From: an uncultured Ruminococcus sp.
GTDB taxonomy: Bacteria > Bacillota > Clostridia > Oscillospirales > Acutalibacteraceae
Length of the DNA: 46,875 nucleotides
Direction: 5' to 3'
NCBI GenBank assembly: GCA_902763835.1
Contig: CACWTQ010000051.1
Coordinates: 1-46,875, forward strand
Made by a program: the position numbers and the translations under genes. The number at the start of each line of letters is the position of its first letter. The first letter of the stretch is position 1. Positions 108 to 46,875 of this stretch are shown piece after piece. The notes below the pieces were generated by a model. That model saw nothing but the letters and a program-made list of their open reading frames with translations. It was not told the DNA's origin and did no database searches.

Positions 108-261
108 GGGGCTCTGCCACTGCCGGTGCAAGACCACTAGGAACACCTCCCAATCAGCTTTCTCCTACGGCTCGGATTCTTGGGGTGTTCCGTCGCCCAC
201 AAGCTTTGAAAAGCTTGACCAAACTTTAAAATGCTAATCCTTTTAGATTTTGAGTATAATA
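108..261. repeat. REP2 copy a
   Basis: A stretch of about 150 bases that recurs, with few differences, at 44249-44401. It runs from GGCTCTGCC to GAGTATAATA and contains AAGCTTTGAAAAGCTT, then GACCAAACTTTAAAAT. It fills the space between MITE-A copy 1 and the 3' end of the histidine kinase. The second copy lies in the same arrangement between a MITE-A copy and the 3' end of the SDR gene. No gene is seen in 1-286. Confidence 0.85.
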
Positions 262-286
262 AACTAACGACTATCACAATTACGAA

Positions 287-1696: not shown

Positions 1697-1775
1697 ATCT
1701 CCCCTCCTTTTCCCAAATATCCTCAATTCAAAAAAATCCCTGTCATTTATTCATTATTCTTTAACAAAGTAACTT

Positions 1776-1904
1776 GAACTGCCCATTGTCTAAATCCAAT
1801 AGGATTCCTGCTTCATCGTCCTTTTAACCTACTAACTCCACAGGCGTAAAATCGGGCTGAACCGTCCCACTGTATAATGCCCTCATGCTTTTGGCAACCT
1901 TGAC
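1776..1904 (-). pseudogene. REP3 copy a, decayed coding fragment
   Basis: About 130 bases that recur at 6767-6896. On the minus strand both copies encode the same peptide core, GTVQxxFTPVELVG followed by DDEAG and ending NGQF. This copy has an in-frame TAA after ELVG and no start codon. I do not recognise the parent protein. It looks like the 3' end of a gene spread by recombination and now decaying. It sits between the response regulator and histidine kinase genes. Confidence 0.6.
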
Positions 1905-1936
1905 CTACACAATAATCATAATTATGCACTGCAATA

Positions 1937-2641: not shown

Positions 2642-2692
2642 AACAAAATTTCCTCCTGTCAACCGTTCATTTAAAATATAATATTTATCGAA

Positions 2693-3349
2693 TCATCTAT
2701 ATACAGCGATACAATAATTAATTTTAATGCCCTCTTCACTGAACATTATTTCGTGTTCGGTAAAAATATTATCCGTAACATTGCTGTTATGCAAATCGTT
2801 AGTTTTATAAACAACATCGTAGCCTGTTTGAGCGAAATACTCAAGCGTATCGTTAAAAAGCGGAAGGTCGTCCGTTTTAAAGCGAATCTCACCGCCTTGC
2901 TTAAGAAACTGCTTATACTTTTCCAGTTTAATTGGGTAAGTAAGTCTTCGTTTATTATGTTTTCCTCTTGGCCAAGGGTTGCAGAAATTAATGTAAATTC
3001 TATCAACCTTATCTTCCAAAGATAACATATTCTCAATCTGTTCAACATTAAAGGCAGTCAAAACAAGATTATCGACTTCACGGTTATTTTCCTCAAAGAG
3101 CTTAACGATATTACGTCTTGCGACACCGAGCATATCGCTTTTTATATCCACAGCGAGAAAATTCACATCAGGATTTTTCAACGCAATCTCGGCAGCGAAT
3201 CCACCCTTTCCGCAGCCAAGCTCTAAGAACAGCGGCTGTTTCTTTTTGAATACGGAATTCCAATTACCTTTTTGAGCCGCTGCATCGTCTATAAAAAACG
3301 GACAAACGGCGAGTTCGGGTCTTGCCCACTTTTTTCGTCTGATACGCAC
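2693..3349 (-). CDS. trmB: tRNA (guanine-N7)-methyltransferase
   Basis: TrmB transfers a methyl group from S-adenosylmethionine to N7 of G46 in the tRNA variable loop. The 218-residue length is normal. The SAM-binding motif LELGCGKGGFAAEIA lies near residues 42-56, followed by an acidic loop (AVDIKSDM). The family signature before the C-terminal part reads NFCNPWPRGKHNKRRLT. The family usually has Asp-Pro-Trp-Pro here and this protein has Asn, which may be a lineage variant. The start is GTG at 3349, with AGGAGG about ten bases upstream. The gene precedes the response regulator by 51 bases. Confidence 0.93.
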   Translation of the reverse strand: MRIRRKKWARPELAVCPFFIDDAAAQKGNWNSVFKKKQPLFLELGCGKGGFAAEIALKNPDVNFLAVDIKSDMLGVARRNIVKLFEENNREVDNLVLTAFNVEQIENMLSLEDKVDRIYINFCNPWPRGKHNKRRLTYPIKLEKYKQFLKQGGEIRFKTDDLPLFNDTLEYFAQTGYDVVYKTNDLHNSNVTDNIFTEHEIMFSEEGIKINYCIAVYR

Positions 3350-15877: not shown

Positions 15878-17128
15878 TTACGAGGACTCTGCAACAACGC
15901 TGTACATACCGAACATCGGCATTACGATTGATACAGCAACTACACCTACGATACCTGCAACGATAATTGTCATAGCAGGGGTCATAGCGTCTGTCAATCT
16001 CTTTGTTGATTCATCGGCTTGTTCCTGATAGAGGTCAGCCATTTTGTGCATTGAATCGGAGAACATACCCGATTCCTCACCTACACGTACCATTGATACG
16101 AGAATTGAATCAAATACTTCATAATGGCTCATTGAAACGTTAATCGGAGTACCGATTTTAACATCTTCAATAACCTGACTTAAACAGTCTTTCATAAAGA
16201 TGTTCGAGATAACATCTCTTGAAAGCTCAAGCGATTTAAGAATACTAACGCCGGCATCTGTCAGAGTTGCCATAATGTTACAGAAACGTGCAATGTAGTT
16301 ATTTCTCATAACGTCACCGACAATCGGAATTTTCAAAAGGAACTCCGCAAGCCACATTGCGAACGACTCATTATATTTAAGAAGTGATCTGAAGCCCACT
16401 ACTATGCCTACTACTATAATAAGCAGCAGCCACCAGTAATCAAGCATAAAGTCCGAGAAAGCCATTACGGCTTTTGAAATCGCAGGCAAGTCCGAACCGA
16501 ATGCAAGGAATACGCTTGCGAACGAAGGCAATACGAACATTGACATTACTATAATCATAACAAGAGTCAAACCAACAAGGAATAACGGATACATCATAGC
16601 ACTCTTGATTTTACTTGACAACGTAAGCTCTCTGTGAAGAATATCGGCTGCATTATCGAAAGCCATATCAAGACGACCGTTCGCCTCACCGGCAGCAACA
16701 AGGCTGATTACGATTTCGGGGAATGTTTTGAACGAACCCAAAGACTGTGAAAGCGGAACACCGTTGTAAAGTTCTGTGCTGACAATTGTGAGAATTCTCT
16801 TCATTTGCTTGTCAGCTTCCGTATCAAGCAATACTTCCATTGCCATTGAAAGTGAGATACCTGATTTCATCATAATACCCATCTGATGACATGTTGTAAG
16901 AACTTTTTTCTTGGGAAGTACAACATCGTGAATATCTTTTGCGGACATATCCCTTTGCCACCAAGGCAGATTTTCCTGACTATCCACACCGTCTTTCATT
17001 TCGCCGATTTCGATAGCCGTCATACCTCTTTCCGAGAGAATTCTCTTAACGTCCTCACGACTTTCGGCGGTTACTTCATTTCGGTACTTTTTTCCTTTAC
17101 CGTCAATAGCAAGATATGAATATTTCAA
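15878..17128 (-). CDS. pilC: Type IV pilus / type II secretion inner-membrane platform protein
   Basis: PilC/GspF forms the membrane platform on which the PilB and PilT ATPases act. The 416-residue protein has an N-terminal cytoplasmic domain of about 70 residues, then two GspF repeats. The first contains MGIMMKSGISLSMAMEVLLD and is followed by membrane segments around 175-250. The second contains MATLTDAGVSILKSLELSRD, with VRVGEESGMFSDSMHKMADL before the last membrane segment. The start is TTG at 17128, after GAGGTGA. It begins 11 bases after pilT and ends the operon before a terminator. Confidence 0.93.
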   Translation of the reverse strand: MKYSYLAIDGKGKKYRNEVTAESREDVKRILSERGMTAIEIGEMKDGVDSQENLPWWQRDMSAKDIHDVVLPKKKVLTTCHQMGIMMKSGISLSMAMEVLLDTEADKQMKRILTIVSTELYNGVPLSQSLGSFKTFPEIVISLVAAGEANGRLDMAFDNAADILHRELTLSSKIKSAMMYPLFLVGLTLVMIIVMSMFVLPSFASVFLAFGSDLPAISKAVMAFSDFMLDYWWLLLIIVVGIVVGFRSLLKYNESFAMWLAEFLLKIPIVGDVMRNNYIARFCNIMATLTDAGVSILKSLELSRDVISNIFMKDCLSQVIEDVKIGTPINVSMSHYEVFDSILVSMVRVGEESGMFSDSMHKMADLYQEQADESTKRLTDAMTPAMTIIVAGIVGVVAVSIVMPMFGMYSVVAESS

Positions 17129-17139
17129 AGTGTGTCACC

Positions 17140-18261
17140 TCATCTCCTCATAGCTCCGCCGTAAGGTGGTCTTGCTCCACCCATACCGCCCATACCCGGC
17201 ATACCCATACCCGGCTGCGGCTGATCGGCATCACTGACTTCAAAGCTGTATTCTCTTGCAGTCTGCTGATTAATATAACCTCTGTCAAGAAGCATCTGAA
17301 TACTCTTGTTTCTGGTAATCATACCAAGACCCTTGCTTGTTTCAATAACCTGCTCAATCATTGAAATCTTATTTTCACGAATAAGGTTTGAAATAGCACT
17401 GTTTACAAACATAATCTCAAATGCACCGATACGTCCGGGAATATCGCTTCTCGGAAGAAGTCTTTGCGACACAACGCACTTGAGCGATGTGGAAATCTGA
17501 CCGAGAGCCTGACGCTGCTGTGCAGCAGGGAACATATCTACAAGACGGTCGATAGTTTTAGCCGCACCCTCTGTATGAAGTGTGGAGAACACAAGGTGAC
17601 CTGTTTCGGCGGCGGACAACGCAATAGACACAGACTCAAAGTCACGAATCTCACCGATTTGGATAATATCTGGGTCTTCACGAAGTACGGCACGAAGTGC
17701 GGTATGATACGAGCGGCTGTCGGGACCTATCTCTCTCTGGTTGATTACGCAGCCGATTGGGCGGTGAAGATACTCAACCGGATCCTCAATCGTTACGATG
17801 TTAAGGTTTCTCTCTCTGTTTATCTGATGAACGATAGCGGCAAGAGTTGTAGATTTACCCGAACCCGTAGGACCCGTAACAAGCACAAGACCCTCCTTAA
17901 GCTCGAGAATTTTTGCGATAGATGCCGGAAGATTGAGCTTGTCAAGTTCCGGAGTGTTTTCGTTGATAACACGCATTACGAGAGAGGCACCGTTTCTTGT
18001 TCTGAAAGCATTAATTCTGAAACGGCTGCAGCCCTCAATAGTTGCCGCACCATCGACATCGCAGGTTTCCATAAAGGTATCGAATCTCTCTTTATTGAGA
18101 ACCTGACTAATCATATATGTAACGTCCTCATCTGTAAGCGGATCGCCTTCCCAGTATCTCATCTGACCGTGAAGACGGTATGCCGGACAGTTACCTGCTG
18201 ACATATGGATATCGGAACAGCCAGCTTCAACGGCTTCCTTTACCATTGCAATAAAATCCAT
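17140..18261 (-). CDS. pilT: Type IV pilus retraction ATPase
   Basis: PilT powers pilus retraction. The 373-residue protein carries Walker A GPTGSGKSTT near 130-139, the Asp box TIEDPVEY near 158-165, Walker B IIQIGEIRD near 199-207 and the His box HLVFSTLHT. The last 30 residues are a Gly/Met/Pro-rich tail (PGMGMPGMGGMGG), likely disordered and not part of the core enzyme. ATG at 18261 follows GGGG. The leader carries a MITE-A insertion between its own promoter (18552-18580) and the start codon. Confidence 0.94.
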   Translation of the reverse strand: MDFIAMVKEAVEAGCSDIHMSAGNCPAYRLHGQMRYWEGDPLTDEDVTYMISQVLNKERFDTFMETCDVDGAATIEGCSRFRINAFRTRNGASLVMRVINENTPELDKLNLPASIAKILELKEGLVLVTGPTGSGKSTTLAAIVHQINRERNLNIVTIEDPVEYLHRPIGCVINQREIGPDSRSYHTALRAVLREDPDIIQIGEIRDFESVSIALSAAETGHLVFSTLHTEGAAKTIDRLVDMFPAAQQRQALGQISTSLKCVVSQRLLPRSDIPGRIGAFEIMFVNSAISNLIRENKISMIEQVIETSKGLGMITRNKSIQMLLDRGYINQQTAREYSFEVSDADQPQPGMGMPGMGGMGGARPPYGGAMRR

Positions 18262-18355
18262 CAGTGTTTTCCCCCATTCAGGTTTTTTATACGCTGTCTG
18301 TTATACTCCATTCTCTGTTCGTTTTTCACTCTTCTCTCAGGAAAAACCTCACTTA

Positions 18356-18485
18356 GGAACTGTCAGAAAATAACTTGAACATTTATACTTGTCTAATTTG
18401 CCCTGTGTGTCGTTACAACACCTTGAAATACGTCAGTATTCCTGCGGTGGCGTCTAAATTGTTCAACTTATTTCCCAACAGTTCC
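18356..18485 (-). repeat. MITE-A copy 3 (130 bp) in the pilT leader
   Basis: Complete termini flanked by TTA on both sides (18353-18355, 18486-18488). Inserted between pilB and pilT, downstream of a promoter and 94 bases before the pilT start. The transcript would contain the folded element. Confidence 0.93.
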
Positions 18486-18551
18486 TTATTAAGAGAAGAA
18501 ATGAACACAAAAAGAACAACGAACAACAGACCCATATTTCATCTGCTTATA

Positions 18552-18580
18552 ATTATATCACAATTCAAACAAATTTACAA
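18552..18580 (-). promoter_or_regulatory. Probable internal promoter for pilT-pilC
   Basis: On the minus strand TTGTAA and TATAAT are 17 bases apart, just after the pilB stop. The leader to pilT is about 290 bases and includes MITE-A copy 3. Confidence 0.55.
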
Positions 18581-18617
18581 CAATAAATTTAAAGTTTTTA
18601 ATTTTTTTTCGTATATA

Positions 18618-20324
18618 TTAGAGCATATCCTCACTTGCAGCTTCCATCATTGTTTCAAGTGAAATGATACCGCTGATAACGTTCATTCTGAGATTTTCTC
18701 TCATTGAAATCATACCCTCGTTTACAGCGATTTCGTTGATATCCTCTGTTGATTTACCATTCTGAATAGCTCTCTTGATAGCAGGTGATACCATAAGAAT
18801 TTCATGAACGGCAAGTCGTCCTTTATGACCGCTCTTATTGCATCGTTCGCAACCGCCTTCGGGAGCTCTGTAAAGCTGAAGTTCAAGAGTGGGGTCGTTG
18901 TCAATGCCGAGAAGTTCAAGTTCACGAGGACCTGCAATATACGGCTCTTTGCAGTTTACGCAAAGTCTTCTTACAAGTCGCTGTGCGATAACTCCGATAA
19001 CGGTTGAAGATACCATGAACGGCTCAACGCCCATATCAACAAGACGGATAACAGAAGAAGCAGCGTTGTATGTATGCAGTGTTGAAAGAACCAAGTGACC
19101 TGTTACAGCGGCAGATGCGGCGATTTCGGCAGTTTCCTTATCACGAATCTCACCGATCATGATAATATCGGGGTCTTGACGAAGAATTGAACGAAGTGCA
19201 CTTGCGAATGTAAGACCTGCCTTAGCATTGATATCAACCTGATTAATTCCCGGAATAATCATTTCGACAGGGTTCTCAACTGTAATGATGTTAATATCCT
19301 CTCTCATAACACCCTTAAGCCCAGTATAAAGTGTGGTAGATTTACCTGAACCTGTAGCGCCTGTTACAAGGATAATACCTCTGTTCTGTGAAAGGAGCTT
19401 ATCGAACTTTTCAAGATTTTCGGGGAGGAAGCCGATAGCCGACTTATCCATCTTCAAGCCGATAGCCGTTGTAATACGGGCGCAGACCTTCTCTCCGAAT
19501 ACAACCGGGAGAATGGAAATACGCATATCTACCTCTGTTGTGCCGACACGATAGTTGATACGACCGTCCTGAGGGATACGTTTTTCGGCGATGTTCATAC
19601 CGCCTATGAATTTAATACGAGATGTAACGGATGGAGCAAGCTGGGCACTTGTTTCCATATATTTCTGGAGCTTACCGTCAATTCTGAAACGGATAAGAAG
19701 AACTTCTTCCATCGGCTCGATATGAATATCGGAAGTTTTAAGTCTTACTGCCTCTTCAATCATATTATTTACGAAACGGATAATAGGCTGGTCATCAGCT
19801 GCAGCTTTTGCAGCGTCTATCTCTTCTTCCTTAACCTGACCTGCCTGACTTGCGATAAACTCTCTTGCCTCGTCCTGTGCTTTCTTTGAAGCATACAAAG
19901 CACGATGTGCCTTTGAAATCTGGGAAGGTGCTGCAATTACAGTCTGGAGCGACATCTTCGTTGTGGTCTGAATTCTGTTGAGGTTTTTGTAGTCAAGCGG
20001 ATCGGCAACCGCAATTGTGAGAGTTCTTGTCTGTTCGTCAAGCTCAAGCGGAACTACCATTGCCTGCTCGGCGAGGTCTGCCGAAATAGTGTTGACAAGC
20101 TCGTCCTTAAGCTCAACTTCATCGAGGTCTACAAACGGAATGGAAAACTGTTTTGATAACGCAAAACAAACCTTTTCCTCTTCACACATTTTTTCCTTAA
20201 TGATAATTTCACCAAGACGAAGGTTGTTTTGCTTCTGCATACTTAATGCCTGGTCAAGCTGATCGGGTGTGATAGCACTCATATTAATAAGAATCTGACC
20301 GATTTTTAAGCTGCTGCCTCTCAT
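18618..20324 (-). CDS. pilB: Type IV pilus assembly ATPase
   Basis: PilB/GspE ATPase drives pilus extension. The 568-residue protein has an N-terminal MshEN-type domain (about 1-150), a linker, and the motor domain with Walker A GATGSGKSTT near 322-331, Walker B IIMIGEIRD near 387-395 and His box HLVLSTLHT. Four cysteines near 455, 458, 492 and 495 form the usual zinc site (CVNC, CERC). The Asp box reads VENPVE near 349-354, with Asn where Asp is usual, which deserves checking. ATG at 20324 follows AAGGAG. An inverted repeat of ACCCGTG lies in the gap after pilD (20383-20401) but lacks a T run. Confidence 0.94.
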   Translation of the reverse strand: MRGSSLKIGQILINMSAITPDQLDQALSMQKQNNLRLGEIIIKEKMCEEEKVCFALSKQFSIPFVDLDEVELKDELVNTISADLAEQAMVVPLELDEQTRTLTIAVADPLDYKNLNRIQTTTKMSLQTVIAAPSQISKAHRALYASKKAQDEAREFIASQAGQVKEEEIDAAKAAADDQPIIRFVNNMIEEAVRLKTSDIHIEPMEEVLLIRFRIDGKLQKYMETSAQLAPSVTSRIKFIGGMNIAEKRIPQDGRINYRVGTTEVDMRISILPVVFGEKVCARITTAIGLKMDKSAIGFLPENLEKFDKLLSQNRGIILVTGATGSGKSTTLYTGLKGVMREDINIITVENPVEMIIPGINQVDINAKAGLTFASALRSILRQDPDIIMIGEIRDKETAEIAASAAVTGHLVLSTLHTYNAASSVIRLVDMGVEPFMVSSTVIGVIAQRLVRRLCVNCKEPYIAGPRELELLGIDNDPTLELQLYRAPEGGCERCNKSGHKGRLAVHEILMVSPAIKRAIQNGKSTEDINEIAVNEGMISMRENLRMNVISGIISLETMMEAASEDML

Positions 20325-31459: not shown

Positions 31460-31463
31460 CTAA

Positions 31464-31683
31464 GGAACTGTCAGAAAATAACTTGAACATTTATACTTGT
31501 CTAATTTGCCCTGTGTGTCGTTACAACACCTTGAAATACGTCAGTATTCCTGCGCGGAGGTTAATCTACAGAAAAAGTTGTAGCTATACGGTTGCGAAGC
31601 CTGTTAAAGCTTGACCAAACTTTAAAATGCTAATTCTTTTAGATTTTGAGTATAAATTGTTCAACTTATTTCCCAACAGTTCC
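31464..31683 (-). repeat. MITE-A copy 5 (220 bp) containing a REP2 fragment
   Basis: Both termini are intact, with TAA on the left (31461-31463) and TTA on the right (31684-31686). The inner third has been replaced by unrelated DNA ending in REP2 sequence (31604-31654: GCTTGACCAAACTTTAAAAT and onward). The two repeat families are therefore nested. Confidence 0.88.
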
Positions 31684-31828
31684 TTATTGCCTGCATCAAA
31701 ATTCCTCTTTAAGGAAAGTTTAACGAACGTTGCCCGACTTTCTTGCTGAAAAAAATGATTAAAAAAAATATTCCGAATTTTTCTATTTTGTGCTAACCTC
31801 TGAAATTTTTTCTTCATTTCTTAAAAAT

Positions 31829-32859: not shown

Positions 32860-32928
32860 TGATATTAAGATTGATAGATTTTGAGCGTGACCATAGGCAA
32901 GAAAAATTTGATGATAAAAAGAACATTA

Positions 32929-33024
32929 GGAACTGTTGGGAAATAAGTTGAACAATTTAGACGCAGGATAATTTGTTCTGTGTTAGGCACAACACCGCAG
33001 GAATACTGACGTATTTCAAGGTGT
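32929..33024 (+). repeat. MITE-A copy 6, left half only
   Basis: Begins GGAACTGTTGGG after TTA (32926-32928) and stops in the central palindrome at CAAGGTG. The right half is missing, and the lepA promoter region follows directly. Confidence 0.92.
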
Positions 33025-34917: not shown

Positions 34918-35031
34918 GCCTGTATGTCGTTACAACACATTGGAAATACGTCAGTATTCCTGCGGTGTTGTGCCTAACACAGAATAAATTATCTTGCGTT
35001 TAAATTGTTCAACTTATTTCCAAGCAGTTCC
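34918..35031 (-). repeat. MITE-A copy 7, one terminus only
   Basis: Starts inside the element within a few bases of the lepA stop and runs to the terminus at 35031, followed by TAA (35032-35034). The terminus kept is the same one kept by copy 6, in opposite orientation. It is more diverged than most copies (CCAAGCAGTTCC). Confidence 0.9.
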
Positions 35032-35160
35032 TAATATGCTACAAAAAACTCGATAAATACGCTATATTCATCTAAAATAACACTTCACAGCTATATACAA
35101 AAATTAAAGTAAACAAAATTCGGCAGATATATTTGTACAGTTTTTTAATACGGTAAAGTA

Positions 35161-36673: not shown

Positions 36674-36704
36674 ATACTAGTTAGCAGTAAGATTTAGCAA
36701 ATCC

Positions 36705-36794
36705 CCTTAACCCCTCTGTTCTGCGGACATCTCCCTATAAGAAGCGACTTTGATAAATAGAGAACCAAAAATCCTCCACTTTTAAACAGGCTCT
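36705..36794. repeat. REP-D copy b fused to a MITE-B end
   Basis: Bases 36705-36780 are the inverted counterpart of REP-D copy a (CTGCGGACATCTCCCT, GACTTTGATAAAT). They run directly into TTTAAACAGGCTC, the outer end of MITE-B. MITE-A copy 8 begins nine bases later, so families are stacked here as at 24034-24490. Confidence 0.7.
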
Positions 36795-36803
36795 CAAGTA
36801 TAA

Positions 36804-36922
36804 GGAACTGTCAGAAAATAACTTGAACATTTATACTTGTCTAATTTGCCCTGCGGTGTTGTGCCTAACACAGAACAAATTATCCTGCGTCTAAATTGTT
36901 CAACTTATTTCCCAACAGTTCC
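36804..36922 (-). repeat. MITE-A copy 8 (119 bp, internal deletion)
   Basis: Both termini are present with TAA on each side (36801-36803, 36923-36925). The segment between two CCTG motifs of the full element is missing, so part of the central palindrome is lost. Confidence 0.93.
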
Positions 36923-36929
36923 TAATTGA

Positions 36930-37424
36930 TTAACAAGGTATAACGGAAACAGAACCGTTGCTGCTTACCGCACGGCAACAGTCAACATATACCTCAACAA
37001 ATTCATAACCGCCTCTGTACGCAAGCGAACGTGCCTTTTCAAGTCCTCCGGGCATAGCATGACCGCTTTGATAATGCTCGATAATTCTTCCTGTTATGTC
37101 AAGCGAATGAACCTCATACGGTCTTCCGAGATAGCATGTTGCTACCACTCCGAGCATTATTCCCGTAATCTCAACCTCGGGGAATTCTTCCCTTATTGCA
37201 TTTATTATTTTGTCAACCTGTGCCTGATTGTGAACGTGACCACCTGAGTCAAGCTTCGTCATCGCTTCCATATAAGCTTTTGAGCGTGGCTTTCTGAGAA
37301 GCCTGTCAACCACCATTTTATTCATTTGAGCGTTTTGCTGCTTGTTCTCCTGCTTATGAGATGCACTCAGCGAGCTTTCCATCTTGGTTTCCGTTTGCGG
37401 TCTTCTTAACATCGGCTTTGGCAT
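36930..37424 (-). CDS. Uncharacterised protein, last gene of the Ycf46-like AAA cluster
   Basis: A 164-residue protein of unknown function. Residues 1-60 are polar and rich in Gln, Lys and Met and probably flexible. Residues 60-164 look like a folded alpha/beta domain with ITGIMLGVVATCYLGRPYEV, then HYQSGHAMPGGLEKARSLAY and YEFVEVYVDCCRAVSSNGS. Several His and Cys residues could bind metal but no known motif is matched. ATG at 37424 follows GGGAGG, 30 bases after the ATPase gene, which suggests cotranscription. MITE-A copy 8 lies five bases beyond the stop codon. Confidence 0.65.
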   Translation of the reverse strand: MPKPMLRRPQTETKMESSLSASHKQENKQQNAQMNKMVVDRLLRKPRSKAYMEAMTKLDSGGHVHNQAQVDKIINAIREEFPEVEITGIMLGVVATCYLGRPYEVHSLDITGRIIEHYQSGHAMPGGLEKARSLAYRGGYEFVEVYVDCCRAVSSNGSVSVIPC

Positions 37425-37454
37425 TGTAAATTACCTCCCTGCTGAAATTTTTAA

Positions 37455-39029
37455 TTATACCAAAACTTTTCTTGTTCTGGGTCCCGTTTTTTCCTGCGAA
37501 AGCTTCTCAATACCTATCGGACGACCCGATGCCGGCACAGCCCTCTCTCTGCCCCAGTCACGAATTGCTTCAATCTTTTCGGGACTTGTCTGCGAAAGTG
37601 GAACAACATTGTCAAACGCATTTATTATATTCTCCACATTCAGCACAAAGTTCTCATTGGCTATAACTCTGTACGACAAATCCCTGACTGTGGACTCCAA
37701 ATCTGCACCTGTAAATCCGTCTGTCAATTCAACTATTGTATCGGAGAACAGACCCGCAAATTCAACGTCCAAATATTTTCTCATATAAAGAGAAAGTATA
37801 TCTCTTCTTTCATCGGCTGTAGGAAGGTCAACAAAGAAAAGTTCGTCGAAACGTCCTCTTCTCAGAAGTTCCGAGGGCAGCATGGAAACATCGTTTGCCG
37901 TAGCCACAACAAACACCTGTTTTCTGCACTCCTGAAGCCAAAACAGAAACTGACCGACCATTCTTGTGGAAACACCGCCGTCACCGGAATTGCCTGCACC
38001 GGACAAGCCTTTTTCAATTTCGTCAATCCACAGAATACACGGAGAAACATTTTCTGCCGTGGTGAGAGCGTCTTTCAGCTGCTGCTCCGTCTGACCCACA
38101 TAGCTTCCCTGAACGGTAGCAAAATCAAGCCTGTAAAGAGGAAGCTTCCAGTTCGCTGAAATCGACTTTGCAGAAAGCGATTTTCCGCATCCCGGCACTC
38201 CCACTAATAAAATTCCTCTCGGAGGCTGCAAGCCCTTAGATCTAAGCAAATCACGCTTCTCGGGCGTGAGCAGTTCTTTCTTTTCGTCAAGCCATTTTCT
38301 AAGACCTGCAAGCCCTCCCACGTCTTTTACATTATCGTTAACCTCAATCTTTTCAAGTCCCGAAATATCGGAGAACATTCTGTCCTTTGCAAATCTAAGC
38401 TCGTCCATATCCGATTTGCTTATACGCTTGTTTGCGATAAGAGCGGCCATCACATTTTCAGCTTCAATTCTTGTAACGCCGGTAAGAGTGGAGGCTGCTT
38501 CTCTTATGTCGGAATTGTCCCATTCAATCGGAATTTCCGAACGGTATTCGTCTATAAACTCCTTAATAATGGAGTACATTTCAGCTTCATTCGGAAGGTC
38601 TACCTTAACACTCATTCCCAAACGCTGGAGGTGATTCCAGATAGGAGTATTTCCGAGAACCACAATTGCTCCGCTTGCTTCGTTTGCAAGCGTTGCAAGT
38701 GCAAGAATATGTTGTGCGTCGCCGTTGCCGTCGCTTAAATCGGGCGGGTCTGTCAGAACCAAGGTCAGATGCTGCCTACGCTTCATCTGTTCGCTCATAA
38801 AGTCTATTGCACCGTAAACGGACTTATCGTCGTTTACAACCTTTTCGGAAGAAATATCATAAACTCCCTTTGAAAGAGAATGCACATAAAACGACAAATT
38901 AAGCTCTTCGGCAACTTCCTTTAAAATTTCCAATGCCCGTGCTTTTTCGATTGTGTCTACGGCAATAAAAGGTATTCTTGCTATAGCATATCTTTTAAGC
39001 AGCTCTTTACTTTGAAAATAATCGCTCAT
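37455..39029 (-). CDS. Ycf46-like AAA+ ATPase
   Basis: A 524-residue ATPase. The N-terminal 230 residues resemble the inactive P-loop-like domain of Ycf46 proteins ([15 protein letters not shown], then [17 protein letters not shown]). The C-terminal AAA domain has Walker A GVPGCGKS near 277-284, Walker [11 protein letters not shown] near 332-341, and a second region of homology [20 protein letters not shown] with arginine fingers. A helical lid with [17 protein letters not shown] follows. Ycf46 proteins are widespread in cyanobacteria and scattered elsewhere, with a poorly understood role. ATG at 39029 follows AGGAGG. It is the likely motor of the five-gene cluster. Confidence 0.88.
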
Positions 39030-39043
39030 TAAATATTTTCCTC

Positions 39044-39499
39044 CTAGAACTTATTGACCTTGTGATTTCTGACAATACTTGACATTTTACCGCTTCTGTC
39101 ACTTTTTGCGGAATCTTCAAGGGAACGCTGCACGTTGTTTGCGTGGTCGATAACCATTTGATAAATCTGCTGCCTTTGTTCCTCGGGAACAGCATTAAGA
39201 TTTGTTATCAAATCTGCAAGAAACTTAAATTCCTTGCGAAGTGCAAGCAAAGCCCTGACCACCGCTCCCTCGTCACGAGCTCTTCCGTTGTCCTTATCAA
39301 ACTTATCCGATGCCGCATTCAAACGGTAATTAACGGTTTCCATAAGCTTCTGCAAAAACCTTTCCGCAACACCCGACTGCCACGCAAGATTTCCTCTGCT
39401 CATCAAGCCGAGAACAGCAGCATCATCTGTTTTATTCCTAAGCATATCCAGAAGAGTTACCCACTCCGAATATGTTTTCGGGGGATTCATATTATACAC
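39044..39499 (-). CDS. Uncharacterised helical protein of the AAA cluster
   Basis: A 151-residue protein predicted to be mainly helical, with no membrane segment. Segments such as YSEWVTLLDMLRNKTDDAAV and VVRALLALRKEFKFLADLIT suggest a helical bundle, and the last 20 residues are basic. The start is GTG at 39499, seven bases after AAGGAGG. The ATG three codons later is too far from it. It overlaps the end of the zinc-ribbon gene by eight bases and precedes the AAA ATPase by 14, so the proteins are probably made together. No family recognised. Confidence 0.7.
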   Translation of the reverse strand: MYNMNPPKTYSEWVTLLDMLRNKTDDAAVLGLMSRGNLAWQSGVAERFLQKLMETVNYRLNAASDKFDKDNGRARDEGAVVRALLALRKEFKFLADLITNLNAVPEEQRQQIYQMVIDHANNVQRSLEDSAKSDRSGKMSSIVRNHKVNKF

Positions 39500-39848
39500 G
39501 TTTTTTCCTCCTTACAACCACCTGCGGCGGCTCTATACTCCATTCCGGAAGACCATCGGCAAACACGCTTGTCGGCTCTTCGTCTTCCTTTAACGTACTT
39601 TTAACGGCAGGAGCGAAAGCTGGCGAATCACTTTTTGCTATAGAAACGCTTGAGCTTTTTTTCTTTGCGGAATCGGAAGATACTTTTTGAAATGCTTCTT
39701 CCGAAGAATTTTTTCTCACAAGCTTAGTACCGCAAACGCAGCAAAACAACGCTTCGGGTTCGTTCTGCGTATTGCAGTTAAGACAGGGAATCATTTTCCC
39801 CGACGCTGCCGAATTGATAAACTCCGCTCTGCTTGCTGCACTCATCAT
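39492..39848 (-). CDS. Zinc-ribbon protein with disordered linker
   Basis: A 118-residue protein. A zinc ribbon near 20-44 reads PCLNCNTQNEPEALFCCVCG, with two CxxC pairs. The rest is a Ser/Lys/Ala-rich linker ending in a short hydrophobic and basic segment (FADGLPEWSIEPPQVVVRRK) that may bind a partner. The start overlaps the stop of the membrane protein gene (ATGA). The kinase encoded divergently also begins with a zinc ribbon, which suggests a shared module. This looks like an adaptor rather than an enzyme (inference). Confidence 0.75.
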   Translation of the reverse strand: MMSAASRAEFINSAASGKMIPCLNCNTQNEPEALFCCVCGTKLVRKNSSEEAFQKVSSDSAKKKSSSVSIAKSDSPAFAPAVKSTLKEDEEPTSVFADGLPEWSIEPPQVVVRRKKRV

Positions 39849-41584
39849 TTAATCCCCCTGTTTACGTTTATTTTTCTGCTTGAATTGGAAAGCTTCGCAA
39901 CATACTGCTCCGGGGTGATTTGCTCAAGAAAATCAATAACCTTTTGGCTCTCCCTGTCTGCTCTTGCGAACTCCGCACGGTAGTCTACAATCTCCGCCAT
40001 TATAGCACGAATAATCTGTTCACCGCTTTTACGCTTTTCGCCAAACTGAAACTGAATATTATTTTGACCGTTGGTAACACTTTTCTTCTTGGAAAAATGA
40101 TTTGAAAGAAAAGCAATACCTCCGACAATAGCTATCAATCCCAAAAAGATATTTCCCGTTAAAACCATAATCAAACCCAGACCGCCTATTACAGCACCGC
40201 CCGGCAGACAGAACTTATCAAATCCCGAAAGCTGACACTGAGCCAAAGCGGAATTTTTTTCGCTTTCAACCATTGTGTAAAAGTTTGCGAGAACTTCCTC
40301 TTCATTCTGACCGTCCGTTGAAGAACTGTTGAAATTATCAACGTTAATTTCAATTATATGAGGAACTTTCATTCTGTTCTTGGCGGTTACATCGTTGTAT
40401 GCGTCCATTATCCAATCCTTTGAAAGTGCAATTGCAAACTTCTGCGTTGAAACGCTCGAATGAGCCAGCTCGGGATTCATCGCCGCATCTGTGAGCAGCT
40501 GTGTAAAATCCTTATGAGTTTCAAAGGCAGTTTCCTCGATCGCCATATTTTGCTTTGCTCGTCTTTCGTCGCCGTCAAAATCAATTACAAGCTGTTCGTA
40601 CTTTTCCTTTTTTCTTAAAGGAAGCTCTTCATCATCAAAGTCGGTAACAAGACTGTCGAGAATTTCATCAAGTTGTTCTTTCAAAGTTTTTGTAGTTACC
40701 TTTTGTTCAAAGATATCCGTAAAGTACTGCAAAATATCCGCATGAAGCTGTGCGCCCTCCATAACATCTTTAAGTGCCGACCATGTGTGGCTGTACTTGC
40801 TAAGATACTGATAGCCGGAACCGTTTAAAGGTTTTCTTTTAGCGGATATGGCTTTTGACCACTGCGTTGTTTGTTTCTCAACAAAGCCGGGTGTTTCGGC
40901 AAGCTTATCCATCCATTCATCTATTTGCTTTGATATAAGCCCTTCGGTATCTGCTCCCATAAGACCGCTTGCAAAGGCATCCAAAACAATAATAGCCTTG
41001 CGGTCAAGGTTCTCCTCGTCTTGATTTGCAAGGTATCTTTGAGTCCATTTAAGAGAAGCCTGTTTTCTTCCCGCACGTCTGCACACCAAAGCAAAGAACA
41101 GAGAAGTTTTCTCATCATTTCTTTTAATAGCTTCCCTCAAAGCCTTATCGGCAAGCTCGGGCTGGTCGTTTATCCAAGCTGCAAGAGCAACAAGGCAAGG
41201 TGCAAGCCAATAATTCGGTGTGGAAATCATCAGGTCTTCCGTTGCGTTGCTTATGGTATCCTTTTTGACTATTCCCAAATCGTCTGCCTGAAGAATACCC
41301 GTCGTGCTTCTTCTTACGATATCGTAATGACCGTACTTATTATCAAGCTCCTGACGAATTTTCACGACCTTGGTGTGAGCGAGCTGAAGTCTGTCTGCCT
41401 TGTCTTTTCTTGCGACATAATCGTGAAACTCTTTGGCTAGGTCGCCAAGCTCTTTGTAAACAGTTGATACTTCTTTACCGACACCGGAAACTTTATTTTC
41501 GATACTATCCAGATTATTGTAAATAGTTTTCAGGTTATTTTCAATACCTTTCAGATCGGCATACGGTATTGCATAATCCGACAC
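39845..41584 (-). CDS. Large membrane-anchored protein with N-terminal coiled coil, first gene of the AAA cluster
   Basis: A 579-residue protein of unknown function. Residues 1-60 form a helical, heptad-like segment (KGIENNLKTIYNNLDSIENK) reminiscent of small secreted helical proteins. Residues 115-230 contain helical repeats that could be TPR-like (ALREAIKRNDEKTSLFFALV). One or two hydrophobic segments at about 458-495 (PGGAVIGGLGLIMVLTGNIF and on) anchor it. A soluble C-terminus follows. The start is GTG at 41584, after GGGGGA. It has its own promoter and heads the five-gene operon that ends at 36930. Confidence 0.75.
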   Translation of the reverse strand: MSDYAIPYADLKGIENNLKTIYNNLDSIENKVSGVGKEVSTVYKELGDLAKEFHDYVARKDKADRLQLAHTKVVKIRQELDNKYGHYDIVRRSTTGILQADDLGIVKKDTISNATEDLMISTPNYWLAPCLVALAAWINDQPELADKALREAIKRNDEKTSLFFALVCRRAGRKQASLKWTQRYLANQDEENLDRKAIIVLDAFASGLMGADTEGLISKQIDEWMDKLAETPGFVEKQTTQWSKAISAKRKPLNGSGYQYLSKYSHTWSALKDVMEGAQLHADILQYFTDIFEQKVTTKTLKEQLDEILDSLVTDFDDEELPLRKKEKYEQLVIDFDGDERRAKQNMAIEETAFETHKDFTQLLTDAAMNPELAHSSVSTQKFAIALSKDWIMDAYNDVTAKNRMKVPHIIEINVDNFNSSSTDGQNEEEVLANFYTMVESEKNSALAQCQLSGFDKFCLPGGAVIGGLGLIMVLTGNIFLGLIAIVGGIAFLSNHFSKKKSVTNGQNNIQFQFGEKRKSGEQIIRAIMAEIVDYRAEFARADRESQKVIDFLEQITPEQYVAKLSNSSRKINVNRGIK

Positions 41585-41653
41585 ATTTATCCCCCCATAT
41601 AAAGAATATTTTTGATATATTGATTTTAGAAAATTATGGAAAATTCACAAAAA

Positions 41654-41682
41654 ACTATAATATAATTTAGTTGATAATACAA
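41654..41682 (-). promoter_or_regulatory. Sigma-A-type promoter of the AAA cluster
   Basis: On the minus strand TTGTAT and TATAGT are 17 bases apart, about 70 bases before the GTG start at 41584. Confidence 0.6.
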
Positions 41683-41786
41683 TACCATAATTATCTATAT
41701 TTATATTATAGTAAATTTGTTATAATTTGTAAAGAGTTATTTCTACATTTTTTGAACTTTTTCTTAAATAATATGGTTATAATAAG

Positions 41787-41887
41787 TTAAAGTTTGGGGC
41801 AGAGCCTCTGCCGGCTGACGGAAACAACTTGCAAAAAAAAAAAGAAAAAAACGAACACCGCCGCTTTAAAGCTTGACCAAACTTTAA
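41787..41887. repeat. REP2-related repeat with inverted ends, copy c
   Basis: TTAAAGTTTGG at the left and CCAAACTTTAA at the right are exact inverted repeats. Inside are GGGCAGAGCCTCTGCC, a long A run and GCTTTAAAGCTTGACC, the last shared with the other REP2 copies. MITE-A copy 9 follows within 13 bases. Confidence 0.7.
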
Positions 41888-41899
41888 AATAATAATTAA

Positions 41900-41968
41900 G
41901 GAACTGTTGGGAAATAAGTTGAACAAATTAGACAAGTATAAATGTTCAAGTTATTTTCTGACAGTTCC
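41900..41968 (+). repeat. MITE-A copy 9, minimal 69-bp form
   Basis: Only the two terminal inverted repeats and a short loop remain, flanked by TAA on both sides (41897-41899, 41969-41971). The join lies at TTAGAC, a motif present in both halves of the full element. It could form one long hairpin. Confidence 0.94.
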
Positions 41969-41994
41969 TAAGCATTATGAATAAAAAAAAGCTA

Positions 41995-42023
41995 TTGATT
42001 AATCCAAACTTTTTTGATATAAT
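41995..42023 (+). promoter_or_regulatory. Sigma-A-type promoter of the kinase gene
   Basis: TTGATT and TATAAT are 17 bases apart. The promoter lies 26 bases beyond MITE-A copy 9. Confidence 0.6.
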
Positions 42024-42072
42024 GTATAATATAATTTGTATATTTTTACACAAAAAAAGGACGGTGAATATT

Positions 42073-44040
42073 ATGCGTTACTGCTGCCATTGCTTTGCGG
42101 AAGTAAACGATGAAGAGGGTGCATTCTGCCCCGAATGCGGTAAGGAACACAGCGAGCATTACGGTCAGAGCTACGAGCTTCCTGCCGGAACATATCTCAA
42201 CCACGGAAGATACTTTGTAGGTGAAAGTCTTGGTTCAGGCGGATTCGGCATAACCTATCTCGGCTATGATACTAATTTGAAGAAAAAGATTGTTATCAAG
42301 GAAACTTTCTACATCGGCTATTTTAAAAGAAATGTTTATAACAAAAAAGCCGCAAATCCCCTTGAAGTCGAGTACGACAACACAATCTCACTCGAGTATA
42401 TTATGAATAAGACCCGAAAGGAATGTGAAAGCCTTTCCGAGGGCGAAAGTCTTAATAACATTATGAGAGTGTACGATTTTTTTTCCGAGAATAATACGGC
42501 TTACATTATAACGGAGTACATAGAGGGCGAAACTCTCTTTGACAGAATAAACCGCACAGGCAAAATCGAATGGAATACTCTCTATTCCAAAATGAAACCC
42601 CTTATGCAAAGTCTTTCGGTGCTGCACAAGAAAGGTATTCTTCACAGGGATATCAAACCCCACAACATTATGATTAAGCATACCTACAACTTTGAAGAAA
42701 ATTATATTCTAATCGATTTCGGACTTGCACGCTCCGCCGAAGTGAAAACACTTTCATCAGCGGGAATTGCTTTCAGTCCGGGATATTCTCCGTTTGAGCA
42801 GCGAACATTTACCCAGCCTGACGGTACATACACAGACGTTTACGCACTTGCGGCAACTATGTATCATGCACTTTGCGGAGATATTCCGAACAATCTGGCT
42901 TCGGGTACGGTTGACGAGAACTTCCCGAAATTGTCGGAACTTAAATTAGGTAATTCCGTTCCAAGTTATGTTGCAGATACATTAAGATATGCCTTGAATC
43001 CAAACTTTAAAGCACGCTGTCAGACAGTGGACGAATTTATCGAGCTGCTCGAAAACAAACGAACCGTACCTCAATACGACAGTGAACTTCCTCAGCCCGA
43101 CGGCGGAAATGCGTATTCTCCTCTTTCGTCAAAAACAGTTTATGCACAGCCTAATACAGGAAACTTAGACTCAACCAAAACACAAATTGCTGCAAATAAT
43201 CCGTTTGCAAGCACCGAACCAAACGTAAATATACCGCAGCATAGTCCCGATTTTCAGCCGCCTGCGACTACAACCACGCAACAGACTATACAGAAACCTA
43301 TCACATATCAGGATATCGTTCCGGCAGCTCCGAAAAAGCGTACAAGCTTGTATGCGGTAATCGGCGGATTATGTGCCGTTTTCATCGGAGTGGCTGCATT
43401 TGCAATATTCAAAAGCGTTGGCTCGGACACTCCCGGAGAACGTGATTATACAACCACCAGCTCGCAAGAATCGTATTCAACACGAAGCAGAGTTACTTCT
43501 TCCGCAGACGAAGAAAATTCAATTTACGATACAGTAAGTGAAACTGTTTCAATTGCAGAAGAAGAGGACGTGTTCGATCCACTTTACGGCGAAGGTGCAA
43601 ACGGCACAATCAAACTTAAGGTTTGGGGTTCTGATGCAGCTCAGGAAATTCTCAATGAGCAGTGTAAAACTTTCTCCGAGAATATGAAGGATTATGGCGA
43701 CATTCAGATTGAGGTTGTTCCTCAGGGTGAAGCCGACTCAGCCACTCAGGTTCTCACAGATGCCGAAAGTGCCGCCGACGTGTTTGGATTTGCCTGTGAC
43801 AATATCAACAAGCTCGTAAAAGCAGGTACTCTTCTTGAGGTTACAGGTGCAGAGAAAGATCTCGTAGAGTCTTCAAACAGTGCAGAGTCCGTTGCAGCTG
43901 CTACTGTTGACGACAAGATTTACGCTTATCCCGAAACAGGCGACAACAGCTATGTTCTCGTATACGATAAGTCTGTTGTAAGCGATGAGCAGGCTAAGGA
44001 ACTGTTGGGAAATAAGTTGAACAATTTAGACGCAGGATAA
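42073..44040 (+). CDS. Zinc-ribbon Ser/Thr kinase with extracellular sugar-binding-like domain, truncated by MITE-A
   Basis: A 655-residue protein. Residues 1-25 form a zinc ribbon (CCHCF and FCPECG). The Hanks-type kinase domain (about 47-325) has GSGGFGITYLG, the ATP lysine in IVIKE near 76, HRDIKPHNIM near 191, DFGLA near 215 and GYSPFEQ. A Pro/Gln/Thr-rich linker leads to one membrane segment near 427-446. An acidic Ser/Thr linker follows, and residues 512-642 resemble the N-terminal part of a family 1 solute-binding protein (KLKVWGSDAAQEILNEQCKT, DVFGFACDNINKLVKAG). The MITE-A at 43998 cuts this domain at about a third of its usual length and supplies the tail ELLGNKLNNLDAG. ATG at 42073 follows AAAGGAC. 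It is divergent from the AAA cluster. Confidence 0.85.
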   Translation: MRYCCHCFAEVNDEEGAFCPECGKEHSEHYGQSYELPAGTYLNHGRYFVGESLGSGGFGITYLGYDTNLKKKIVIKETFYIGYFKRNVYNKKAANPLEVEYDNTISLEYIMNKTRKECESLSEGESLNNIMRVYDFFSENNTAYIITEYIEGETLFDRINRTGKIEWNTLYSKMKPLMQSLSVLHKKGILHRDIKPHNIMIKHTYNFEENYILIDFGLARSAEVKTLSSAGIAFSPGYSPFEQRTFTQPDGTYTDVYALAATMYHALCGDIPNNLASGTVDENFPKLSELKLGNSVPSYVADTLRYALNPNFKARCQTVDEFIELLENKRTVPQYDSELPQPDGGNAYSPLSSKTVYAQPNTGNLDSTKTQIAANNPFASTEPNVNIPQHSPDFQPPATTTTQQTIQKPITYQDIVPAAPKKRTSLYAVIGGLCAVFIGVAAFAIFKSVGSDTPGERDYTTTSSQESYSTRSRVTSSADEENSIYDTVSETVSIAEEEDVFDPLYGEGANGTIKLKVWGSDAAQEILNEQCKTFSENMKDYGDIQIEVVPQGEADSATQVLTDAESAADVFGFACDNINKLVKAGTLLEVTGAEKDLVESSNSAESVAAATVDDKIYAYPETGDNSYVLVYDKSVVSDEQAKELLGNKLNNLDAG

Positions 44041-44150
44041 TTTGTTCTGTGTTAGGCACAACACCGCAGGAATACTGACGTATTTCAAGGTAACGACACA
44101 CAGGGCAAATTAGACAAGTATAAATGTTCAAGTTATTTTCTGACAGTTCC
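43998..44150 (+). repeat. MITE-A copy 10 (153 bp) inside the kinase gene
   Basis: Complete termini flanked by TAA (43995-43997, 44151-44153). It is inserted in the extracellular domain of the kinase and ends the frame after 13 codons. No sequence continuing the solute-binding domain was seen downstream. Confidence 0.95.
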
Positions 44151-44248
44151 TAAGGGTTGCTTTGGTCTATTTTTTTTTACAGAAAGTTTACCTAGTTTCG
44201 CTGAGGGTAATTCATTTTTCTACGATAATTTGCTCCGTCAGCGAGCAA

Positions 44249-44401
44249 GGGCTCTGCCCCTGCCGGTGCAAGACCACTAGGAACACCTGCCAATCAGCTT
44301 TCGCCTGCGGCTCGGCTTCTTGGGGCGTTCCGTCGCCAGCAAGCTTTGAAAAGCTTGACCAAACTTTAAAATGATAAATCTTTTAGATTGTGAGTATAAT
44401 A
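44249..44401. repeat. REP2 copy b
   Basis: Near-identical to copy a (108-261). It lies between MITE-A copy 10 and the 3' end of the SDR gene, the same order as copy a. The interval 44154-44248 holds no gene. Confidence 0.85.
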
Positions 44402-46601: not shown

Positions 46602-46823
46602 ATGAACGGAAATCAGATTGAAACAAACATTACAAAAAGTATCAAAAAACAGAACGGCGAAGTTATTCAAGATGAACGTCAAAGGCTTTACAATATGTCT
46701 GCTTTGACGTGCGGTTTGGTCGCAGGGTTAATTTTGGATATTGTAATGATATTTTATCATTTTTTTACAAGAAACATTAAGGAACTGTTGGGAAATAAAT
46801 TGAACAATTTAGACGCAGGATAA
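46602..46823 (+). CDS. Membrane protein encoded with the XRE regulator, truncated by MITE-A
   Basis: A 73-codon reading frame. The native part covers about 59 residues: a polar start (NITKSIKKQNGEVIQDERQR) and one hydrophobic segment (LTCGLVAGLILDIVMIFYHF). MITE-A copy 11 then supplies KELLGNKLNNLDAG and a stop. Similar regulator-plus-membrane-protein pairs usually have two or more membrane segments, so the 3' part is missing. ATG at 46602 follows AAAGGGGAA. It may be inactive. Confidence 0.7.
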   Translation: MNGNQIETNITKSIKKQNGEVIQDERQRLYNMSALTCGLVAGLILDIVMIFYHFFTRNIKELLGNKLNNLDAG

Positions 46824-46875
46824 TTTGTTCTGTGTTAGGCACAACACCGCAGGAATACTGACGTATTTCAAGGTG
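46781..46875 (+). repeat. MITE-A copy 11, cut by the window end
   Basis: Starts GGAACTGTTGGG after TAA (46778-46780) and runs to the central palindrome, where the window ends. Its last 33 bases equal the first 33 bases of the window. Confidence 0.93.

What the first reader, a model, noticed from the sequence alone, without database searches (positions are those of the whole stretch)
36930..44040. Uncharacterised AAA+/zinc-ribbon/Ser-Thr kinase system
Five coupled minus-strand genes encode a coiled-coil membrane protein, a zinc-ribbon adaptor, a helical protein, a Ycf46-like AAA+ ATPase and an orphan alpha/beta protein. A Ser/Thr kinase that also begins with a zinc ribbon is divergent from them. 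Overlapping stops and starts (39845/39848, 39492/39499) point to a complex. None of the non-ATPase members matches a family I know. The layout suggests a membrane-tethered, kinase-regulated AAA+ machine. Function is open: signalling, protein remodelling, secretion or defence.
Basis: partly seen in the sequence, partly recalled or inferred. Interest (0 to 1): 0.8.

Follow-up and report, generated by a model that had tools for sequence, protein, structure and literature searches.

The report
Mobile five-gene membrane AAA+ module
Five neighbouring genes that travel together between very different bacteria appear to encode an ATP-driven protein-remodelling machine tied to the cell membrane; in some relatives it sits beside toxin-like genes, and the protein kinase next to it in this genome is an unrelated older resident.

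Summary
The five minus-strand genes at 36930-41584 are intact and a genuine unit. P5 (membrane solenoid), P3, P2 (AAA+ ATPase) and P1 are all present in 66 of 68 relatives with enough flanking DNA, across Bacillota, Fusobacteriota, Pseudomonadota and Bifidobacterium, and on a streptococcal satellite phage and plasmids. P1, P3, P4 and P5 reach no Pfam or NCBIfam cut-off. P4's constant part is a C-terminal motif; its zinc ribbon is optional (40 of 72).

The kinase does not belong: its kinase part matches in 21 of 22 genus genomes, a relative lies in 1 of 86 module loci, and sibling G007 has an empty site with an intact kinase. Here a repeat element cuts the kinase; inverted copies of the element bracket the module.

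Function is inferred. In 7 loci a HerA-like ATPase precedes the module; in 6 of these an acidic repeat gene follows P2, one with a papain-fold toxin domain, one with a SUKH neighbour. The same ATPase and acidic genes occur elsewhere with Hsp70/DnaJ or a DO-GTPase. I read the module as a membrane-tethered client-remodelling engine of biological conflict; anti-phage defence is the main rival.

The parts
36930..37424 (-). P1, 164 aa, conserved orphan; predicted helix-3 strands-helix-3 strands in its C-terminal half
   Evidence: ORF; alignment A5, 68 sequences, 14 invariant residues; AlphaFold2 pLDDT 75.8; no PDB or BFVD fold match with E<=0.001; no PDB sequence match at E<=0.1; ten Pfam families hit by 1 of 68 members each at E<=0.05
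37455..39029 (-).
   Evidence: PF00004 99.9 bits; PHROG 8638 332 bits; alignment A4; AAA half aligns to an archaeal VCP-like ATPase, E=3.6e-57
39044..39499 (-). P3, 151 aa, orphan, no fold computed
   Evidence: ORF; 46-member alignment A7; only weak annexin-like hits (PDB profile E=1e-4; 2 of 46 members Pfam Annexin, best E=0.01)
39492..39848 (-). P4, 118 aa, optional zinc ribbon plus conserved C-terminal motif GLPEWSIEPPQVVVRR
39845..41584 (-). P5, 579 aa, membrane protein: N-terminal coiled coil, helical solenoid, hydrophobic hairpin about 457-498, C-terminal coiled coil
   Evidence: AlphaFold2 pLDDT 83.1, pTM 0.63; hydrophobic peak in 62 of 62 members of alignment A6
36801..36926 (.). Copy of a ~160-nt repeat element with terminal inverted repeats, at the left border of the module
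   Evidence: 40 near-full-length places reported in the genome (which scored 40 of 425 candidates)
41897..41973 (.). Shortened copy of the same element in opposite orientation, at the right border of the module
   Evidence: inverted repeats I10 and I11
42073..44040 (+). Zn-ribbon Ser/Thr kinase with solute-binding-protein-like part, 3' end lost; judged NOT part of the module
   Evidence: PF00069 108 bits; genus-wide family; intact 895-aa copy at the empty site
43995..44155 (.). Element copy that interrupts the kinase gene

Best explanation
The five genes are a horizontally mobile module that builds a membrane-tethered AAA+ remodelling machine. P5 sits in the membrane with its solenoid and coiled coils in the cytoplasm; P2 forms the ATP-driven ring; P3, P4 (through its GLPxW...VRR tail) and P1 connect ring, anchor and client. 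The machine unfolds or re-arranges client proteins for systems of biological conflict. In clostridial versions with a HerA-like ATPase the clients are most likely toxin-like proteins with acidic, repeat-bearing N-termini that are encoded after P2; in core-only versions such as this one the client is unknown or encoded elsewhere. The neighbouring kinase is an independent older resident. Shown: gene content, co-conservation, presence on mobile elements, empty site, active-site motifs, hydrophobic segment. Inferred: complex formation, topology, client handling, conflict function.
For: Co-conservation: P1, P2, P3, P5 all present in 66 of 68 loci with at least 5.5 kb 3' and 0.7 kb 5' of P5; pairwise distances of the four proteins correlate with r 0.89-0.93 over 72-78 loci, without correction for shared descent. 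Two gene orders: P5-P3-P2-P1 in 53 of 87 rows (one row a duplicate record), P1-P5-P3-P2 in 18 of 87. Mobility: satellite phage Javan368 carries the module, identity 77% (P2) and 64% (P5); two Komagataeibacter plasmids; P5 in only 2 of 60 relatives, own genome included; empty site in G007. Toxin link: c8 plus c7 (HerA-like, PF01935 36.6 bits in L053) directly upstream of P5 in 7 loci; an acidic FDDC-repeat gene after P2 in 6 of those 7 and, by the same pattern, in 0 of the other 79; PF15644 toxin domain 57 bits in L060; SUKH neighbour PF09346 38 bits in L069. The divergent version in congener G018 also lies beside an acidic-repeat gene. Other engines beside the same HerA-like ATPase plus acidic gene: Hsp70 (434 bits) and DnaJ in G410, DO-GTPase2 (38 bits) in G318.
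Against: The window copy has no HerA-like gene, no acidic toxin-like gene and no immunity-like gene. Acidic-repeat genes occur in only 6 of 86 loci, and one of those six (L077) is cut by its contig, so the link may concern one sub-lineage. Three further loci with a HerA-like gene of the same cluster (L079, cut; L083; L123) and one with c8 alone (L061) show no such gene. The toxin N-terminal domain gave 1 weak hit (E=0.0035) in 22 genus genomes and none at E<=1e-5 in 391 class genomes, the latter without a positive control, so clients elsewhere are not shown. The G018 acidic-repeat protein and those in G410 and G318 have no Pfam match. L052 and L088 keep P5 without P1-P3, and P5 relatives also sit beside SPFH proteins, so P5 is not exclusive to this machine. 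No result supports an actual complex; P1 has no fold match.
Confidence: 0.42

Rival explanations
1. A stand-alone anti-phage defence system: the AAA+ ring senses or remodels a phage product and releases P5 (membrane hairpin) or P1 as the effector that stops the cell.
For: Carried by a satellite phage and plasmids and patchy; inserted at an empty site; 80 of 86 loci lack an acidic-repeat gene; P5 model has weak similarity to alpha-pore-forming toxins (best E=0.052, probability 0.97, TM 0.20 on the query).
Against: No PADLOC model covers the module; IetA matches only the AAA part, 111 bits, and NCBIfam IetA scores 86.5 bits against a cut-off of 510. The pore-toxin similarity is not significant. 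Enrichment of defence genes in the neighbourhood was not measured.
Confidence: 0.27
2. A membrane-integrity or protein-quality system, with P5 as a membrane stress scaffold and P2 as extractor of damaged membrane-associated proteins.
For: P5 relatives in G237 and G440 follow an SPFH-type gene (Band_7_1 98.7 bits in L169; its G440 counterpart in L170 by eye) and Zn-ribbon genes; Zn-ribbon M48 peptidases directly follow P1 in L080 and L096. The listing of PMC8581546 (title and start of abstract only) links a B. subtilis SPFH protein to PspA.
Against: Patchy, mobile distribution and toxin-like cargo fit a conflict role better than housekeeping; only 2 SPFH loci seen, and they show no P1, P2 or P3.
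Confidence: 0.17
3. One reading: a kinase-regulated AAA+ machine that includes the divergent kinase.
For: Physical adjacency and a shared Zn-ribbon theme; Zn-ribbon genes follow P1 within about 110 bases in 12 of 86 loci.
Against: Kinase present at the empty site without the module; kinase part in 21 of 22 genus genomes; kinase-domain relative in 1 of 86 module loci; the window copy has lost its 3' part.
Confidence: 0.03
4. Chance neighbours without common function.
For: None found.
Against: 66 of 68 loci keep the set.
Confidence: 0.01

Closest known systems
NTP-dependent conflict systems of Kaur et al. 2020 (PMC7159879; outline, passages and sections 29 and 33 seen)
   Same: Membrane-linked, Zn-ribbon-rich, an NTPase engine with exchangeable partners; the P5 homologue of L052 (67% identity) stands beside VWA, Tubulin_2 and DO-GTPase2 genes, a theme that section 29 describes for Firmicutes
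   Different: No MoxR, vWA, GTPase or GAP1 family matched in the five-gene module; the word searches Ycf46, Cdc48 and solenoid found nothing in that paper's text and HerA only in its references
[quoted passage not shown] 2012, PMC3482391; passages seen)
   Same: Six relatives carry a shared kind of N-terminal part, five of them with visible and differing tails, and small following genes, including PF15644 and a SUKH neighbour
   Different: The secretion routes named in the passages seen do not include this module; the window copy has no toxin
IetAS anti-phage system
   Same: An AAA+ ATPase of similar AAA domain (PADLOC IetA 111 bits)
   Different: Below the NCBIfam IetA cut-off (86.5 of 510 bits); no protease family in the module proteins
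Phage-encoded AAA ATPases (PHROG 8638)
   Same: Match over residues 121-501, 332 bits
   Different: 29 of 31 IMG/VR loci with a P2 relative show no blastp hit (E<=0.01) to P1, P3, P4 or P5 within the DNA held, up to 8 kb each side

Membership tests
AAA+ ATPase, Ycf46-like | Active C-terminal AAA domain with Walker A, Walker B and arginine finger | tested here: met
   PF00004 99.9 bits, cut-off 21.2; motifs invariant in 7 orthologues
AAA+ ATPase, Ycf46-like | Degenerate ATPase-like N-terminal half | tested here: inconclusive
   The N-terminal half is conserved, but no model of Ycf46 was scored; the label is recalled
IetAS defence | IetA over curated cut-off | tested here: not met
   86.5 bits against 510
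IetAS defence | Partner subtilisin-like protease (recalled) | tested here: not met
   No protease family in the other module proteins
MoxR-vWA or GTPase-centric conflict system | MoxR plus vWA, or TRAFAC GTPase with GAP1, in the operon | tested here: not met
   Pfam scan of all five proteins; VWA, Tubulin_2 and DO-GTPase2 only beside the lone P5 of L052
Polymorphic toxin system | Toxin with variable C-terminus and adjacent immunity gene | tested here: not met
   Absent in the window; acidic toxin-like genes in 6 of 86 loci, one with a scored toxin domain, one with a scored immunity-type neighbour
Contractile injection system (PVC, T6SS) | Phage-tail-like structural genes | tested here: not met
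   No tail family at E<=0.001 among the five proteins, the kinase and two neighbours (a sub-cut-off Pfam HK97-gp10_like hit of P3, E=0.089); rest of the genome not tested
Kinase-regulated module | Kinase conserved with the module | tested here: not met
   1 of 86 loci; empty-site kinase
Anti-phage defence system | Protection against phage | not testable with these tools
   Needs plating assays

The most novel reading that the evidence does not exclude
An undescribed toxin-deployment apparatus of Gram-positive bacteria: a HerA-like pump plus a Zn-ribbon membrane protein handles toxins with acidic repeat leaders, and is powered by one of several interchangeable chaperone engines (this AAA+/P5 module, Hsp70/DnaJ, or a DO-GTPase). 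The AAA+/P5 module is the engine that also moves alone on satellite phages and plasmids.
Probability: 0.22. Interest if true: 0.85.

Novelty: new variant of a known kind. Interest (0 to 1): 0.6.

Why it matters
A tightly co-conserved, mobile five-gene set in which four proteins reach no Pfam or NCBIfam cut-off is a good experimental target: it is small, self-contained, spread over four phyla and cargo of a satellite phage. If the toxin link holds, it adds a chaperone-driven route to the ways in which bacteria handle polymorphic toxins and suggests that AAA+, Hsp70 and GTPase engines can replace one another in one apparatus.

Tried and rejected
Kinase as a member: rejected by the empty site and the family's distribution. 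P1 as a type-III-secretion-like (TY) chaperone: its strand order and passages of PMC9503650 suggested it, but Foldseek gave nothing with E<=0.001 in PDB or BFVD, and hhalign against the TY-Chap1-like protein of L167 (itself E=0.003, below its cut-off) gave probability 0.8%. P5 as alpha-pore-forming toxin: E 0.05, TM 0.2, not accepted. P3 as annexin: PDB profile E=1e-4 without a stretch that passes alone, 2 of 46 members in Pfam; not accepted. Toxin N-terminal domain as a marker in other genomes: nothing usable. Literature: no paper held Ycf46 + AAA + zinc ribbon; 32 papers hold Ycf46, 15 seen in the listing, mostly plastid genomes by title; searches with HerA, polymorphic toxin, zinc ribbon, AAA+, DO-GTPase and TY-Chap listed no title about this set. 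Only three papers were opened, in part: PMC7159879, PMC3482391, PMC9503650. The library is open-access full text only.

Limits: the 86 loci were picked by P5 similarity: the best 80 of 216, one satellite phage, four plasmid-collection records (one of 2.1 Mb is probably a chromosome) and one viral record; L122 duplicates L098, and L040 and L041 are near-identical plasmids. Gene calls in scripts are simple longest-ORF calls; the zinc-ribbon and acidic-repeat counts rest on patterns.
Full report
What is there. The window holds five intact minus-strand genes, here P5 (39845-41584), P4 (39492-39848), P3 (39044-39499), P2 (37455-39029) and P1 (36930-37424), in order of transcription. P2 is an AAA+ ATPase (PF00004 99.9 bits) whose C-terminal half resembles Cdc48/VCP and whose nearest PHROG is a family of unknown function (332 bits). 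P5 has a hydrophobic stretch in 62 of 62 members of alignment A6 and an AlphaFold2 model with N- and C-terminal coiled coils around a helical solenoid and a hydrophobic hairpin (pLDDT 83.1). P1, P3, P4 and P5 reach no Pfam or NCBIfam cut-off and have only weak PADLOC and PHROG hits (E 0.008 or worse). P1 and P5 have no PDB fold match with E<=0.001; P3 and P4 were not folded. In PDB sequences P1 finds nothing, P5 only coiled-coil or helical designs and fragments (best E=0.0025) and P3 annexins (best E=1e-4). P4 has a sub-threshold zinc ribbon.

It is a unit. A scan of 84,980 species found 216 relatives of P5, best 80 kept. With plasmid-collection, phage and viral records there were 87 rows, 86 without a duplicate record. 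Order P5-P3-P2-P1 occurs in 53 of 87 and P1-P5-P3-P2 in 18 of 87; the other 16 have split frames, extra copies or partial sets, several on short contigs. Of 68 loci with enough room, 66 hold P1, P2, P3 and P5; the exceptions are L052 and L088. One counted locus, L115, has broken frames. Named hosts include Streptococcus, Enterococcus, Paenibacillus, Selenomonas, Fusobacterium, Comamonas, Achromobacter, Komagataeibacter and Bifidobacterium. P4 with the tail GLPxW...PP...VRR was found in 72 of 87 rows (4 rows without P3 could not be scored), with a zinc ribbon in 40 of those 72; P2 ends in a basic-hydrophobic tail such as TRKVLV in 73 of 80 copies.

It is mobile. The satellite phage Javan368 of Streptococcus oralis ends with the module; two Komagataeibacter plasmids carry it. 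Among 60 relatives, own genome included, only the own genome and G018 have a P5 match. Sibling G007 has the same locus, LepA to SDR gene, without window 36675-41984 and without P5. It is the only empty-site comparator: in G004, G014 and G020 only the SDR region aligns. In the window the module lies between two inverted copies of a ~160-nt element with terminal inverted repeats; one search lists 40 near-full-length places in the genome, having scored 40 of 425 candidates. Whether the element moved the module is not shown.

The kinase is not part of it. In G007 the kinase is 895 aa and intact with no module beside it. All 22 genus genomes match the query at E<=1e-40, but G001 only in the solute-binding part, so the kinase part matches in 21 of 22; of the 13 matches in this genome 11 cover the kinase part, the window's own included. 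A related kinase domain (blastp E<=1e-5) lies in 1 of 86 module loci, L084, 3.5 kb upstream. In the window the gene runs into an element copy at 43995, its 3' part is missing, and a stretch that lies upstream of the kinase in G007 is found downstream of it here.

Cargo and partners. In seven loci (L049, L053, L057, L060, L069, L072, L077) two genes precede P5 on its strand: c8, a Zn-ribbon protein with a hydrophobic C-terminal end by eye, and c7, a HerA-like ATPase (PF01935 36.6 bits in L053). In six of the seven, all but L057, a gene with acidic repeats and FDDC-like motifs follows P2; none of the other 79 loci has one by the same pattern. Among those 79 are L079 (c7, contig cut after P5), L083 and L123 (a HerA-like gene elsewhere in the locus) and L061 (c8 without c7). 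The tails differ: PF15644 papain-fold toxin domain in L060 (57 bits); in L069 an HNH-like tail by eye, followed by a SUKH protein (PF09346 38 bits); metallopeptidase-like motifs by eye in L049, L053 and L072 without Pfam support; L077 is cut by its contig before any tail. Small following genes in L053, L060 and L072 have no Pfam match over a cut-off. In congener G018 a divergent version with three P5-like genes, a P3-like gene and a P2-like gene lies beside another acidic-repeat gene, without a Pfam match. Zn-ribbon genes follow P1 within about 110 bases in 12 of 86 loci: L045, L050, L057, L060, L066, L069, L072, L078, L080, L084, L093, L096. Two of these were scored as M48 peptidases (L080, L096), L084 clusters with them.

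Engines seem exchangeable. Close c7 relatives (E<=1e-100) occur in 2 of 391 class genomes, G410 and G318, neither with a P5 match. In G410 c7 is followed by an acidic-repeat gene without Pfam match, a small TY-Chap1-like gene (E=0.003, below cut-off), Hsp70 (434 bits) and a DnaJ-TPR gene; in G318 by an acidic-repeat gene, also without Pfam match, with a DO-GTPase2 gene (38 bits, cut-off 27) upstream. P5 alone (L052) stands with VWA, Tubulin_2 and DO-GTPase2 genes, a combination like one that Kaur et al. 2020 describe for GTPase-centric systems (PMC7159879, section 29). P5 relatives in G237 and G440 follow SPFH-type and Zn-ribbon genes. These are few loci, and the pattern is a lead.

Mechanism. 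I commit to a membrane-tethered AAA+ remodelling machine serving conflict systems (0.42). P5 anchors, P2 works, P1, P3 and P4 connect. Steps shown: gene set, motifs, hydrophobic segment, presence on mobile elements, empty site. Steps inferred: assembly, client, direction of threading, outcome. Defence without toxins is the chief rival (0.27).

Results against my reading. The window lacks c7 and toxin-like genes; a c7 paralogue (31% identity over query residues 201-757) sits on another short contig. The toxin-domain searches gave one weak hit in 22 genomes and none in 391, the latter without a positive control. 80 of 86 loci show no acidic-repeat gene by the pattern used.

Novelty. The word searches made listed no paper on this set; only open-access full text is covered, and three papers were opened in part. 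That is weak evidence of absence.

Noticed in passing
window 31461-31686, 32926-33022, 34943-35032, 36801-36926, 41897-41973, 43995-44155, 46778-46875: A ~160-nt inverted-repeat element family; 40 near-full-length places listed in the genome. One copy truncates the kinase, two inverted copies bracket the module.
   Followed up: partly
window 42073-44155 and 44149-44400; L162 4576-4711: The kinase region is rearranged relative to sibling G007: the 3' part of the kinase is missing and an upstream stretch lies downstream.
   Followed up: partly
window kinase residues 496-640; G000:C23:9299-9733: The solute-binding part of the kinase is 88% identical to part of a 456-aa open frame elsewhere in the genome, which looks like a recent fusion or gene conversion with a free binding protein.
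   Followed up: no
L131 (G000:C177) 136-3183: A 1015-aa HerA-like ATPase with a low-complexity Ala/Gly/Ser-rich insert, paralogue of c7, on a 3.3-kb contig; neighbours unknown.
   Followed up: no
L169 6685-11275 and L170 6629-11222: P5 relatives as last gene of an SPFH / membrane / Zn-ribbon gene row; the P5 of L169 also passes the Pfam cut-off of EspC (PF10824, 27.1 bits, cut-off 23.5), possibly through its coiled coil.
   Followed up: partly
L096 12109-13482, L060 6366-7280 and P2 C-termini: A basic-hydrophobic motif like RTRKVL(L/V) or RRQVLMGG recurs at P2 C-termini, at P3 C-termini of Paenibacillus and Proteobacteria, inside c8 and inside the Zn-ribbon M48 peptidase.
   Followed up: partly
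window 15878-20324: Genes that look by eye like type IV pilus PilC, PilT and PilB homologues; not scored.
   Followed up: no
L047 15880-18207: A TIR-domain protein (48.9 bits) 0.3 kb beyond a membrane gene that follows P1.
   Followed up: no
NZ_CP084075.1 (L038): A 2.1-Mb record listed as a Fusobacterium plasmid, with almost no annotation, is more likely a chromosome.
   Followed up: no
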